A stretch of 64,000 nt of DNA from assembly GCF_037975245.1 (NCBI RefSeq), contig NC_092567.1:23712376-23776375 (forward strand), written 5' to 3'. A program made the translations under genes and the position numbers. Positions 30,901 to 36,900 of the stretch are shown in pieces. This DNA is from Apostichopus japonicus. Its lineage: Eukaryota; Echinodermata; Holothuroidea; Aspidochirotida; Stichopodidae. Within the stretch, counting starts at the first letter, position 1, and every line of letters starts with the position of its first letter. Under the pieces are notes generated by a model. The model saw only the letters and a program-made list of their open reading frames with translations, ran no database searches and was not told the origin of the DNA.

Positions 30901-33900
30901 TCCAGATTCTGGAAGAAGTGGTGTACAGTGTTTACTAAACATTCTTATGTTTATATTAGAGTTAAATTATTATGTACCATGTGTATGTTTATCGTTGTAC
31001 CCACAAGTCAGCCATTCGATATACAAAGTAGTTTGTAGTGATCGATTAAAGATGTGGTTGTCTTATTATTTTAGTATTTCAGACGAAAAAAAAGCTATTT
31101 GTTCGCCTTCACTATCCTTGATAGTGGTAAAGGTTGATAAATTAAAGGAGACACATACTAAACCATCATTATTTTTCTATTTGATAAAGACTGCTGTCAT
31201 GAATAACTCCTTCCTCTTTTCCTCCATCCCTCCTTTCCATCTCTCCTTTACTTCCATTCCTCCCCCTCCCTCCTCAATCAAGCCTACACACATCCCCTTT
31301 AATTAAATGTACTTGTTTCTCCTGAGTGTATTCATTGTGTCAACAATACCAGTCTAGACTCTTCAAGTAGGAAAGTGGCACACTGCAAACTTGGCAGACT
31401 TCACCACAATTTACGTGACTTTTTGGGGGTACATAAAAAAAATTGAAAAGACACATAAAAAACCTTCCCCAAGAAGTGCACCAGTTAACAGATCTGTAAA
31501 CCTATAAATAAATATGCAATGTTCAATCCTTGTGCATCTGACAGGTGTCAAGTCTGTTAAACCAGGATGGGACCTACGCGGCCAAATTTTAGATTTGCAG
31601 GCGTCGGTTTCAGAAAAGGAGGAGGAATTATTGGTTGTCAAGGAGACCGCTCAGTCTCATCTGGAAGAGAAAGAAACTCTACAAACTCAAGTTGAGATTC
31701 TGGAAGGTCGGATAAAAGAGATAACGAGAGAGTTGGAGGTCAAATCTGGCAAATATGACCTGTTACAGAGGGAGACCATTTCCATGGAGATGGAGTTATC
31801 CAATACAAAGGTTTGTATTAGTTTTAAAGATAAACAAGACTGTTCTTTGTCACATGACCCTTACAGAGCTCTCAGAATTGGGTCAAAATGTTTAATGCTG
31901 AGGTTAACATTAGGTCAATACACAGCCAGTTGGGAAAATTGTCCCATGCTAATACCACTCTGTACTGTCCTGCCATATCATGCTTGAAAGCACTCATACT
32001 GACAGTACAAACAGTTCCTAACCTTTATCTGATCAATAGAAACATGATATTCATACTGCTCATACTGACAATTTAATTGCTCTGAATACAGTATAGAAAA
32101 ATATTGTCCCTACCGGGTGTCAATACAATATGGTTATTGCAAGCCTGTAATGGTGATTAAACCTGTATACATGACAGTGAGGGAGGAATAGGTGGTCATT
32201 CCTCTATGTTCATAAACCTGTTTACATGTCGACAGTGAGGGAGGAATAGGTAGTCATGCACCAGAGTATATCCTTTCAGCTGGCTTCACCAATCGGTACC
32301 ATCTGTTTTGGTAGAGACTATCTGACCTCTTCACAGGCATCCAGCTGCAGCTTATATGTTGATCTTCATTGATAACTCACTATTCATGTGTTTTGCAACA
32401 TTTTCTGACACTTTCATCAACATTTACAGGCCACGGTTGAGAGGAAGGAAATGGTGATCAAAGAGAGAGATGGGGAAATCAGAGGACTGAAACAAAACAT
32501 TGACGAGATGACTGCAACTATAGAAGACCAGAATAAGAAACTAATCGAGGCCGAAGAGACGAGAAAACGTCTCCACAATGCAGTTCAAGAACTGAAGGTA
32601 AAGTAACAGAGCATTTCACATCTATGAAATCTTCAGCATTAAAGGCATGGAAGACTCGCCCCAAACTGCGTGCGGCCATCTGAAAAAGTTTCTGTTGCTT
32701 GCAAGTGACGTTTGTTTGTGTCGCTACAAAATGCAGACAGTTAATGATACTTTGTTATCTTTAGCTGGACCTGAGATGTCCATCGCTGTATCGTTTGTAT
32801 ACTGTGCTGTGGGTATTGACCGCAGCTGTATGTACTGACTGTACACTAGTGTCTAATTACTGACGGTAGCAAGCTGTGTGTGTATTTTCTGGGATCGATG
32901 GTGGTGTTTAACACTTCTGTTACACCTCATTCGAAACAAAGTCAAATTACCGGCATAAGACGTTTCTCTTTGCGCGAGTCTTCACACCCTTTAAAATGAG
33001 CATTTCCTTGTTGAACACACAATTATCCACATCCCCGCTCACACATATCCTTAGTAAATGTTATGAATATGCATATACATATCCATAGGAAATGTACTGA
33101 ATATGCATAGAACATATGTATACGGTACCTAAATGTACATCCCATAAGAAGTGTGTCTGGGTTCGCCTGAACATTTTCCCATAAGTTCATTGAGAATTTG
33201 TTCTGGATGTTTCCTGGTGTAAATGATGCCGGCGAGTAAACTTCTGTGCGACAATGACAAAACAGTACAGTTTGTGACTGTTATTTAAAGGAGCATATTG
33301 CATATTTTGGGCAAATTGAAGGTTAAAGCTTCAGACTTCGTTTTGCTAAAGTAACTGCATAGTAGCTACATAATGTGTAAATAGTGTCGTTTGGCAATTG
33401 AAAGAACATCAATGACTTAACAGAGAATTTTCAGGTCCTTGAAATATTGACATTCCTCTCGGTTGAAAATGTACCAAGTTTGGATTCAGTTAAGTTTTAA
33501 ATACTTTCCCAACCTATTTCAATCGGTCATGTGTAAGCCAAAAAGAGAAATAATTCGGGACACAATATGTTCTGATAATCTCATTCATACCAAGGCAGTA
33601 CCAACGTACTCTTTTATGATCCCTGTACGAAATATGCTCAAAACGGCAGTATGCTCCTTTAAATAACAATTGCAGACTACTTTGGAGAGGAGAGAGATGG
33701 TCATAAGCGATAGAGACAACGAGATCTCAAATCTGAACAAAACCGTTGAGGATTTGAAGGCGAAAATTGAAGAGCAGCACCAGGAACTGATCGAAGGAGA
33801 AGAGGCCAGGAAATCTCTTCACAACACAGTTCAAGAATTGAAGGTAAACCGTAACAGAGCACGCCAAATCTAAGAAAAATCAAACAAAAAGTCAGATCCA

Positions 33901-36900
33901 TTTGTTTCCTGAGTATAGGACAGCAAGTTTTCCAGACCTTGAATGCACAGTCAGGAATTCTGCCTGTCTAAGCTATTGTCTCTCAGAAATTACATTACAC
34001 TACATACATGTGTGTGTGTGTGTGTGAAATATGACCTCCAGCGACCTACAGAATGTGCCGTTTGATTGTCCAAAAATAAAGTACCAATCAAAAATTGAAT
34101 TGAATTTTGGGTTTTCTTTGGAAGAGGGGGGAGGGCACAGTGTTAAATGGTTTTGTCTGAGTGTTTGATAATATTGAAAAATGTACACTAAATATGAGGT
34201 GACAATGTTGTATATATGGTAGTTGTGTGAGGCTGTTACTTAAAGGAGCATACTGTGTCTTAGCCAAACCCTACAGTATCCCTGTCATTTAGATAGAATA
34301 GCTTTCTGTTTTAGCTTAGTATTGACCAGTGTAATAACACCCGAGACTTTGGTCTCAATATAGAAAGGTATTTTGGTGAATATTTACTCCCATGATATTA
34401 AGGTGAACACTGCAAAACCAAAAATGTAAAACAAGTAAATAGTGATTTGCTTTGATAGTCTCATAATTCTCTTCCTTGTTTAAGTCATAAATTAAGTGAG
34501 ACATTTGCCCCGTTACGATTGTTAATTCAAACGGCAGTATGCTCCTTTAACTAACGTTTACAGAGTACGTTGGAGAGGAAGGAGATGGTGATAAACGACA
34601 GAGACGCAGAGATCACAAATTTAAACGGAACCGTCGAAGAGCTAAACGCCAAACTTGAGGAGCAGCATCAAAAGCTGATAGAAGGAGAAGAGATGAGGAA
34701 ATACCTCCACAATGCAGTCCAGGAACTGAAAGTAAACAAAATATACAGTATTAACTTAGGGAATCAGTAGTTGGGAAAAAATGATATTTCAAACAGACAG
34801 TTGACCTGTAATATCATAGATATGCAAATTGATGACAAAAAACAAATGTCTTTATATATCTTGTCTTTATATTGTCTTTATATATCTTGTCTTAAAAACA
34901 ACTTGTCTTTATATATCTGAATACTTTTGACCTGTGACCTTGGATTCTACTGAGCTTTACCAACAGGATTCAGTAAGGAGGGAGGTGTGTGTGTGGGGGG
35001 GGGGGTGAGTAATAAAACACACACCATAAAAACCAGTGAATGTTGACTTATTGATTGTTCAAATTATGATGCATCCAATGATGAGATAGAAAATTAGAAA
35101 GTTTGATTAAAATTTAGAGAAAAGATTTTGACATTTTTTTACTATTAAGTCTTTTTTGTATACTGATCATATTAAACCCTTGCACCAAAGGCTTCAATGG
35201 TCAGTTCTACCTTGTGTGTTGCAATAACAATCGTCTTCATGGCATACACAATTTGTTGTTGTTTATTGTCATGGTTCTACTGGTTTTTCATGACCACATT
35301 TGCTTCCTTTTTTTTACAGTAGGTGACAACGACTGCCAAACATTCCACTTTTATCTATCTTGCATTAATTAATTTATGCAGGATAAAATTTATGCAGGAG
35401 GATAAAATTCTTTCTAAGGGTTTCTTTTTTCTTTTCTATGCAGCTGTATATTTTTCCCTGGATTCTTTGCCACTCTTCCCCCTAATATTTTCTTCCTCAC
35501 TAACTTAATCTACTTTCAGACTTTAATTTTCAGAATTTAGGGGTGAAAAAAATATATTTCAACACAGTTGAAAATACACAGATGCTCACCATGTCAGAAT
35601 TTTTGGATGCATTTCTGACAAGAAGATTTTTTTCTTCCATTCATTTCAAAATTGATTGTCATATTGATATCTTAGCACAGAATTCAAATTCCGATGGAAC
35701 TGATCAGCTTTTGATTTATTTCGTTAAATATATCAGAATCCTGAATTGCTATTAGTTTAAAATAAGTTAAAGTTATATATTTCTCATGAGAAATACATGT
35801 TCATATTATTTATTTTGTTTATGTTCGTATATTTTTTATGTTCATATTTCAACGAACATCCTACCTTTTACACGCCCCCTCTATCACCTCTCTCCTATCA
35901 ACCTACAAAGCCCCCCCCCCCCCGCTCCTATTAACCTACCATCCCTCCCTCCTCCACTTCAAAGCATATATTTTTCGGAGACGTCCCATTGCTTAATATA
36001 CAGTATCTCAATATCTGGGGATTAGATAAAATCAGAACCTTGAAGAAATTGCTTTTGAAAACTTCTGAATTCTTTTAGTGCTCTTAAGATTTGGGACTGC
36101 ATATTCTAGTGACAACAGTTATTATGACTCAATTTCAACCTAGCTATAAATAATGCCCCTTTTCTCTCTATTCAGGGTAACATTCGTGTCTACTGCAGAG
36201 TTCGACCACTGCTTACAGGAGAAGAAGAAGAAGCACAAGACTTCATCTCGTTTAGCGAAGATCAGAAACTCTTGGAATTGATCAATCTGAGAGATAGAAG
36301 CGTAAATAAGGTAAAACCAGAAATCAAGTGTAAACTCCATGACTAATTGTTTGCAAGAAATTGATAATTTTTAAAGTTCTGTAATTATCCGGGAATATTG
36401 AGCCAATATTGTTGCTAGCGCTACCTGACATTTTCACTAAAAATATTTGATTTTTATTTAAATTATTTGAATAAATACATCATTGAAAAATGTTGTTCTT
36501 CAAAACCAGGGAAGAAAAATGAAGTACCCAAGTGGAGAATGTACAAACTAAACAATTTATTTCTAACATTCGCAGACTTCAAAGAAACTAGAGTTTTCAT
36601 TCGATCATATCTTCGGACCAGCCTCTACGCAGTCCGAAGTTTTCAGCGAAATCTCGCAGCTTGTCCAGGTAAGATTAGCCTTGGTCATAGGATGGTGGAT
36701 ACCAGAAAGAAGTATAATAGACACTTGGAATTTGTGTTTGACTTGTATTGTGATTATATGTGCACGACACGATTAGGCAATGTGGACATGTGTGAATCGT
36801 ATCGCTCAAGTATATTTGTCTTTCTTTTTGGGGGAAATGGGAGTGGAGGAGAAAGTCCCAATTGAATAAGGCACTGCTTCAAAAATAATAGAAAAAACTG

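What the first reader, a model, noticed from the sequence alone, without database searches (positions are those of the whole stretch)
32430..34731. Triplicated kinesin-14 neck/stalk exon, possibly mutually exclusive
Three consecutive 168-bp, phase 0-0 exons each encode a homologous 56-residue coiled coil ending LHN-x-VQELK, the sequence that in kinesin-14s leads directly into the GNIRV motor start. Constitutive use of all three would bury two neck-like ends within the stalk. Alternative use would give motors with different necks, the element that sets minus-end direction and stroke in this family. All copies are intact and diverged (about 55-77% identical by eye), so they look selectively kept. 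I do not know of such an arrangement in KIFC1 genes.
Basis: partly seen in the sequence, partly recalled or inferred. Interest (0 to 1): 0.82.

Follow-up and report, generated by a model that had tools for sequence, protein, structure and literature searches.

The report
Triplicated neck exon in kinesin-14 gene
A cell-division motor gene, probably of an echinoderm, carries three old, intact copies of the exon that joins its lever to its engine, so it may build motors with different or longer levers, but only RNA data can show whether it picks one copy or uses all three in a row.

Summary
A KIFC1/Ncd-like kinesin-14 gene (inferred coding span 27935-42078) has three consecutive 168-bp, phase 0-0 exons with GT-AG borders. 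Their 56-residue products are 55%, 61% and 77% identical, at strongly diverged synonymous sites: old copies, not assembly artefacts.

New here. (1) Each exon is exactly eight heptads, and coiled-coil register runs unbroken from the preceding exon into one, two or three copies, so the protein does not forbid series use. (2) All copies keep the residues matching Ncd R335, K336 and N340 (and an acid at D344), which dock the neck on the motor; partners of D424, R350 and K640 are present. Each copy can therefore serve as a neck, but a choice between them is not expected to change direction. The last 12 residues are invariant at 10/12 against 20/44 elsewhere (p=0.02; p=0.12 without core positions). 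(3) Inverted-repeat arms, probably transposon-derived, lie over the acceptors of copies 2 and 3. (4) Copy 3 has the weakest of 15 donors by U1 pairing.

Alternative inclusion is slightly favoured over constitutive series; strict mutual exclusivity is unproven. No transcripts or related species could be examined.

The parts
27935..42078 (+). Inferred coding span of the KIFC1/Ncd-like kinesin-14 gene: 16 coding exons, 15 introns, 746 aa if all three neck exons are joined (634 aa with one)
   Evidence: exon chain, all 15 introns GT-AG, one open frame; Pfam Kinesin E 5.5e-112 at residues 409-735 and Microtub_bd 1.4e-57; Ncd, Kar3 and KIFC1 are top solved relatives
31545..31810 (+). Exon upstream of the array, first part of the coiled-coil stalk, ends in phase 0
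   Evidence: heptad register continuous with each neck exon (its last 78 residues)
32430..32597 (+). Neck exon copy E1 (ATVERKEM...[13 protein letters not shown])
33676..33843 (+). Neck exon copy E2 (TTLERREM...[13 protein letters not shown])
34564..34731 (+). Neck exon copy E3 (STLERKEM...[13 protein letters not shown]); its donor AAA|gtaaac is the weakest of the gene's 15 by U1 pairing energy
36176..36310 (+). First motor-domain exon ([11 protein letters not shown]...)
40411..40624 (+). Motor exon holding GGNSK, the lysine that aligns with Ncd K640 (partner of neck N340)
33269..33301 (+). Arm A, 5' arm of the inverted repeat in the E1-E2 intron
33646..33678 (+). Arm A', 3' arm; covers the polypyrimidine tract and 3' splice site of E2
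34234..34255 (+). Arm B, 5' arm of the inverted repeat in the E2-E3 intron
34534..34562 (+). Arm B', 3' arm; covers the polypyrimidine tract and 3' splice-site region of E3
32598..32629 (+). Donor-side intron stretch after E1, alike the one after E2
   Evidence: local score 38, 0 of 200 shuffles reach it
33844..33877 (+). Donor-side intron stretch after E2, alike the one after E1; no significant counterpart after E3

Best explanation
The neck exon of a KIFC1-like kinesin-14 was tandemly duplicated twice long ago: first E1 from the E2/E3 ancestor, then E2 from E3. The second duplication probably carried an inverted-repeat element with it. Each copy still encodes a full, motor-competent neck. 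I think the copies are most likely included alternatively: some transcripts join E1 or E2 directly to the motor exon, so the gene makes motors with different necks, and perhaps also motors with one, two or three neck units in the stalk. Shown: the exon anatomy, frame and coil register, age, retention of the Ncd-type docking residues in all copies, and alike intronic arms over the E2 and E3 acceptors. Inferred: that E1 or E2 is ever spliced to the motor exon, that the arms govern this, and that isoforms differ in neck stiffness or stalk length rather than in direction.
For: Exon position 56 aligns with Ncd R346, so Ncd R335, K336, N340 and D344 correspond to exon positions 45, 46, 50 and 54. 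R, K and N are identical in 3 of 3 copies and the acid is kept as E in 3 of 3. The partners of D424 and R350 and K640 (GGNSK) are present in this motor. N340-K640, R335-D424 and D344-R350 are neck-motor contacts, and K640 with N340 is required for minus-end motility (PMC2906495, passages); N340K gives a motor that slides both ways (PMC2922096, passages). In a plain stalk position 50 would be an outward f position and position 45 a core a position, with no evident reason to keep N and R. The last 12 residues are invariant at 10/12 against 20/44 elsewhere (hypergeometric p 0.020; for the last 14 and 16, p 0.030 and 0.040) despite strongly diverged synonymous sites. E3's donor is the weakest of 15 (-3.2 against -5.0 to -11.0 kcal/mol), which would favour joining E1 or E2 to the motor. 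E2-E3 likeness upstream is high over the arm and acceptor (22/24 at -36) and 11/24 at -60, while the stretches between the arms are not significantly alike (31 of 200 shuffles score as high). The four arm duplexes are -33.7 to -39.3 kcal/mol against shuffle means of -9.3 to -12.5 (lowest of 500 shuffles -22.2).
Against: All three exons are divisible by three, so joint inclusion is fully coding; [quoted passage not shown] 56 residues is exactly eight heptads, so series use keeps the coil. Restricted to non-core heptad positions, the neck-end excess is not significant (6/8 vs 14/32, p 0.12; for the last 14 and 16, p 0.14 and 0.08). Part of the E1-E2 likeness at the neck end may be RNA-level constraint or gene conversion: third positions there are 10/14 identical against 17/42 upstream and the likeness continues 34 nt into the intron. 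Not every Ncd contact is kept: this motor has S where Ncd has E413 (partner of K336), and exon position 35 (Ncd K325) is N, H, H. No clear docker site in the outer introns. Mutually exclusive use of duplicated exons is said to be uncommon (PMC9741552, Introduction). No transcript was seen.
Confidence: 0.5

Rival explanations
1. Constitutive series: all three exons are always included. The duplications simply lengthened the stalk by 112 residues (about 16.6 nm of coiled coil at 1.485 A per residue, a recalled figure), and only E3 acts as the neck.
For: All copies are 168 bp, phase 0-0 and intact. The coil register is continuous through prev-E1-E2-E3. Joint inclusion gives one open 746-aa frame. 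Mutually exclusive splicing of duplicated exons is said to be uncommon (PMC9741552, Introduction).
Against: E1 and E2 keep the motor-docking residues (R45, K46, N50, E54) although in series they would never meet a motor. E3, which would have to be spliced to the motor every time, has the weakest donor of 15.
Confidence: 0.37
2. Strict mutually exclusive choice among three neck exons, enforced by competing pre-mRNA structures made when the exon was duplicated with its stem arms. (A subset of the best explanation, not an addition to it.)
For: Four alike arms flank E2 and precede E3 and can pair within each intron (A.A', B.B') or as the nested set A.B' with A'.B that loops out E2. All four duplexes are far below shuffles. 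The predicted ensemble gives the nested set in 1 of 4 stretches folded and A.A' in the other 3. The duplication model of PMC6071210 (abstract, Results and Discussion read) makes competing arms in a related way.
Against: Both pairing sets cover both acceptors, so they do not by themselves choose one exon; B.B' is hardly formed in any of the 4 predicted ensembles (summed pairing 0.06 to 1.0). E1's last 24 intron bases are somewhat alike (16/24 and 17/24) but no inverted partner of this kind was found for E1 (best 25 of 37 pairs shown). In annotated clusters it is the outer introns that pair with inner ones, and inner-inner pairing is not enriched (PMC6071210), the reverse of this case. Exon lengths do not enforce exclusivity.
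Confidence: 0.25
3. Only one or two copies are in normal use and the others are silent or minor relics not yet lost.
For: The genome holds dead fragments of this gene: an E2-unit copy with an in-frame stop and a deletion at the donor plus four copies (the first truncated) of motor exon 36576-36668 on C3, and broken motor exons at window position 71781-72485. So parts of this gene duplicate easily.
Against: All three exons in the gene itself are open, have GT-AG splice sites and show dN well below dS where dS can be computed, with strongly diverged codons.
Confidence: 0.1

Closest known systems
Ncd / KIFC1 / Kar3 (kinesin-14) neck
   Same: C-terminal motor; neck R-[KR]-x-L-H-N leading into L-[KR]-G-N-I-R-V in Ncd and Kar3; top PDB relatives are Ncd, Kar3 and KIFC1
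   Different: Here the neck-coding exon is present three times in a row; nothing of the kind showed (no papers) or in the titles and abstracts listed
Mutually exclusive tandem exon duplications (Mhc, tropomyosin, srp, 14-3-3zeta, Dscam; named in PMC9013439 part 1 of 4 and PMC6071210)
   Same: Neighbouring homologous exons of equal length and phase; likeness also in adjacent intron ends
   Different: No transcript data; lengths divisible by three; pairing is between inner introns, with no clear outer docker site
Insect muscle myosin heavy chain alternative exons (PMC2257972, abstract in listings only)
   Same: Another motor in which alternative exons diversify one gene's products
   Different: Here the exon encodes the coiled-coil neck/stalk of a microtubule motor, and alternative use is unproven

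Membership tests
Kinesin-14 (KIFC1/Ncd type) | Kinesin motor domain at the C terminus | tested here: met
   Pfam Kinesin at 409-735 of 746, E 5.5e-112
[quoted passage not shown]
   Aligns with Ncd RKELHNTVMDLRGNIRV and Kar3 MRRTLHNELQELRGNIRV
Kinesin-14 (KIFC1/Ncd type) | Closest solved relatives are kinesin-14s | tested here: met
   The best 21 of 60 rows shown for the neck-motor query and the best 19 of 60 for the C-terminal query are kinesin-14 proteins, as I read the molecule names (3t0q as a Kar3 and 1sdm as KCBP are recalled); KIFC1 is first in the latter (6.7e-34) against KIFC3 3.3e-30
Kinesin-14 (KIFC1/Ncd type) | Minus-end-directed motility | not testable with these tools
   Needs protein; N340 and K640, required in Ncd, are present in all three necks and in the motor
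Mutually exclusive exon cluster | Homologous neighbouring exons, same frame and length | tested here: met
Mutually exclusive exon cluster | One and only one copy in each transcript | not testable with these tools
   No RNA data held
Mutually exclusive exon cluster | Joint inclusion breaks the frame or the fold (common, not universal) | tested here: not met
   168 bp each; frame and heptad register continuous
Docker-selector mutually exclusive cluster | Outer-intron docker site pairing with selectors by the inner exons | tested here: inconclusive
   The strongest inverted pairs are between inner-intron arms (25 of 37 pairs shown, weaker pairs with the outer introns among them). Outer introns do not exceed shuffles, but the same test also missed the inner arms (12 shuffles per pair)

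The most novel reading that the evidence does not exclude
A single kinesin-14 gene makes motors with three interchangeable necks (and stalks of one, two or three units). Exon choice is steered by transposon-derived inverted arms that were duplicated along with the exon and now cover the acceptors of copies 2 and 3. This would be a genetically encoded lever-arm series for a spindle motor.
Probability: 0.2. Interest if true: 0.72.

Novelty: new variant of a known kind. Interest (0 to 1): 0.47.

Why it matters
In kinesin-14 the neck is the lever and an element that sets direction. Natural exon copies with the docking residues fixed but the upper coil varied, and units that add exactly eight heptads, would give a natural series for asking how neck stiffness and stalk length shape stroke, sliding and spindle pole focusing. 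If all three are used in series, it shows instead how a motor stalk can grow by whole in-register exons without loss of function.

Tried and rejected
Retrocopy test: I searched the whole genome for spliced copies that would reveal the mRNA form. The protein query (40 matches) and the DNA queries (one search scored only 40 of 3429 candidates) showed no intronless copy. Two matches run through neck and motor in one frame (C3:1510623 and C15:12727023), but at 38-39% identity they look like other kinesins. What turned up were unprocessed dead fragments: C3:8051430-8052008 (E2 with its introns, 88% identical) followed by four copies (the first truncated) of motor exon 36576-36668, and broken first motor exons at window position 71781-72485.

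Recent constraint on E2: against the C3 dead copy, exon differences are 9/164, upstream intron 11/187, downstream intron 25/218; 5 synonymous and 4 non-synonymous changes in the exon. This is inconclusive.

Docker-selector test: the long-intron duplex energies (6 intron pairs, 12 shuffles each; the high-copy repeat 32639-32995 and the 41 bases before it left out) lie within the shuffle range for all 6. The inner-inner pair that holds the arms is among them, so the method is insensitive and says little either way.

Is the arm pair a recent separate transposon insertion? TTAAAGGAGCATAYTG occurs 45 times in the genome (control 1), so it is the end of a dispersed repeat. But 4 of the 45 lie in these two introns, and neither element has a relative elsewhere (itself and the C3 copy; itself only; these searches skip very common words). 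I looked at 30 fetched loci, 4 of them the gene's own, which gave 26 other ends of 41 in the genome; 4 comparisons exceeded their 40 shuffles, by 1 or 2 points. A single insertion before the E2-E3 duplication fits best; two separate insertions are not excluded.

Predicted folds depend on the stretch chosen, so I do not claim which pairing forms.

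Full report
Where it is. The window lies in a 671.6-Mb, 35-contig genome. Its mitochondrial COX1 reads with the expected residues (STNHKDIGTLY) when AAA is Asn and ATA is Ile, as in table 9 (echinoderm and flatworm) and table 14; table 5 puts Lys at the first Asn. I take it for an echinoderm; the COX1-ND4L-COX2 order read there agrees (recalled, not tested). The class is not settled.

The gene. Chaining exons by frame and GT-AG borders gives 16 coding exons and 15 introns at 27935-42078 and a 746-residue protein. 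The motor is at the C terminus (Pfam Kinesin, residues 409-735, E 5.5e-112). The best solved relatives are Ncd, Kar3 and KIFC1. It is a kinesin-14 of KIFC1/Ncd type. The model is inferred from sequence; no transcript was seen.

The array. Three exons, 32430-32597 (E1), 33676-33843 (E2) and 34564-34731 (E3), are each 168 bp and phase 0-0. Protein identities are 31/56, 34/56 and 43/56 and DNA identities 114, 114 and 127 of 168. Where the amino acid is shared, codon identity is 16/30, 18/33 and 24/42 against 11.7, 13.1 and 16.6 expected by chance, so synonymous sites are strongly diverged though not fully saturated, while dN is 0.14-0.29. There is no fourth copy between 27000 and 45000. E2 and E3 are closest in protein and DNA, so E1 probably split first.

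Coil geometry. The best heptad phase has its a position at residue 3 of each exon. The upstream exon's own best phase (78 residues tested) runs into that phase without a break, and 56 residues is eight heptads. One, two or three copies all give a continuous coil. This removes the argument that series use would spoil the stalk, and equally lets any single copy serve as neck.

Neck competence. Ncd's motor begins at G347 (PMC2906495, passages). The alignments put this G after exon position 56, so exon position n is Ncd n+290. Chain position 60 of 2NCD is then N340, and the GGNSK lysine counts to 640; this takes the 420-residue chain to start at 281. Ncd neck-motor contacts are N340-K640, R335-D424 and K325-E567 in one head and D344-R350, N340-R350 and K336-E413 in the other; K640 with N340 is required for minus-end motility (PMC2906495). 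N340K makes a motor that moves both ways (PMC2922096, passages), and randomising 12 neck residues gives a plus-end motor (PMC9474454, passages). All three exons have R45, K46, N50 and E54 at the places of R335, K336, N340 and D344. The motor has the partners of D424, R350 and K640. It has S, not E, at E413, and position 35 (K325) is N, H, H. So each copy carries the core docking set but not every contact. The last 12 residues are invariant at 10/12 against 20/44 (p 0.020), but restricted to non-core positions it is 6/8 against 14/32 (p 0.12): suggestive, not decisive. Because the direction-linked residues are identical, alternative use would not be expected to alter direction.

Introns. Likeness of E2 and E3 upstream is high over the acceptor (22/24 at -36) and drops to 11/24 at -60 and 1/24 to 6/24 at -84 to -72, with a weaker patch of 13/24 at -108; E1 shares 16/24 and 17/24 with E2 and E3 over its last 24 intron bases. 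The E2-E3 stretch is the 3' arm of an inverted repeat whose 5' arm lies upstream with 344 nt (E2) or 279 nt (E3) between the arms. The four arms can pair within each intron (A.A', B.B') or across E2 (A.B' with A'.B nested). Duplex energies are -39.3, -34.5, -35.7 (A.B') and -33.7 (A'.B) kcal/mol against shuffle means of -9.3 to -12.5. The arm core TTAAAGGAGCATAYTG occurs 45 times in the genome against 1 for the reversed control, so it derives from a dispersed repeat; 4 of the 45 are here. The stretches between the arms are not significantly alike (31 of 200 shuffles reach their score). Since sequence without protein constraint between E2 and E3 has largely decayed, the survival of both arms suggests they are kept, but separate later insertions are not excluded. 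Of four nested stretches folded, one gives the nested cross-pairing and three give A.A'; B.B' is hardly formed in any. E1 and E2 share a donor-side 34-nt intron stretch (0 of 200 shuffles) with no significant counterpart after E3. E3's donor pairs worst with U1 of all 15.

Reading. Tandem exon duplication is said to be common but mutually exclusive use uncommon (PMC9741552, Introduction read). 60% of human mutually exclusive clusters have lengths not divisible by three (PMC5740500, passages), unlike here. Duplication of an exon with stem arms can create competing structures (PMC6071210, abstract, Results and Discussion read), but there outer introns pair with inner ones, whereas here inner arms pair with each other. 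Outer introns show nothing beyond shuffles, in a test that also failed to pick up the inner arms. I give 0.5 to alternative inclusion with E1 or E2 sometimes next to the motor (strict exclusivity, a subset of it, 0.25), 0.37 to constitutive series, and 0.1 to unused relics.

Known or not. A text search for kinesin-14 with mutually exclusive exons gave 0 papers, as did one on duplicated exons in a kinesin stalk. Broader ones (15 of 16, 15 of 3,289, 12 of 2,001 and 6 of 7 papers listed, titles and abstract starts seen) showed no such neck-exon array. The library is open-access only and no related genomes could be searched, so this is a statement about those searches, not about the literature.

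Noticed in passing
29639-29683, 30302-30361, 30813-30863: The basic tail of the same protein is encoded by three short consecutive phase 1-1 exons (45, 60, 51 bp) with alike endings ([22 protein letters not shown]), possibly a second set of duplicated exons.
   Followed up: no
L009/L010 = C3:8051430-8052667: Unprocessed dead fragment of this gene: the E2 unit with an in-frame stop and a deletion at the donor, directly followed by four copies (the first truncated) of motor exon 36576-36668 with flanks, at a 175-bp period.
   Followed up: partly
71781-72485 in window numbering (L017, 7.8-8.5 kb past the window end): Second dead fragment: part of the first motor exon with a stop, and motor exon 36576-36668 in two tandem copies.
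   Followed up: partly
32639-32995: High-copy interspersed repeat in the E1-E2 intron; 38 of the 40 scored genome matches are copies of it at 91-93% identity.
   Followed up: partly
25599-25682: U2 spliceosomal RNA-like match just over threshold (53.3 vs 46 bits) with 84 bases over a 192-position model, probably a truncated pseudogene.
   Followed up: no
5688-6196, - strand: Overlapping long frames made of a short peptide repeat (NPAIRIKPCNQDQTLQSGS-like), apparently a DNA tandem repeat.
   Followed up: no
51771-52712, - strand: Open frame of 313 aa; its C-terminal part reads like a TRAF/MATH domain (recalled resemblance, not searched).
   Followed up: no
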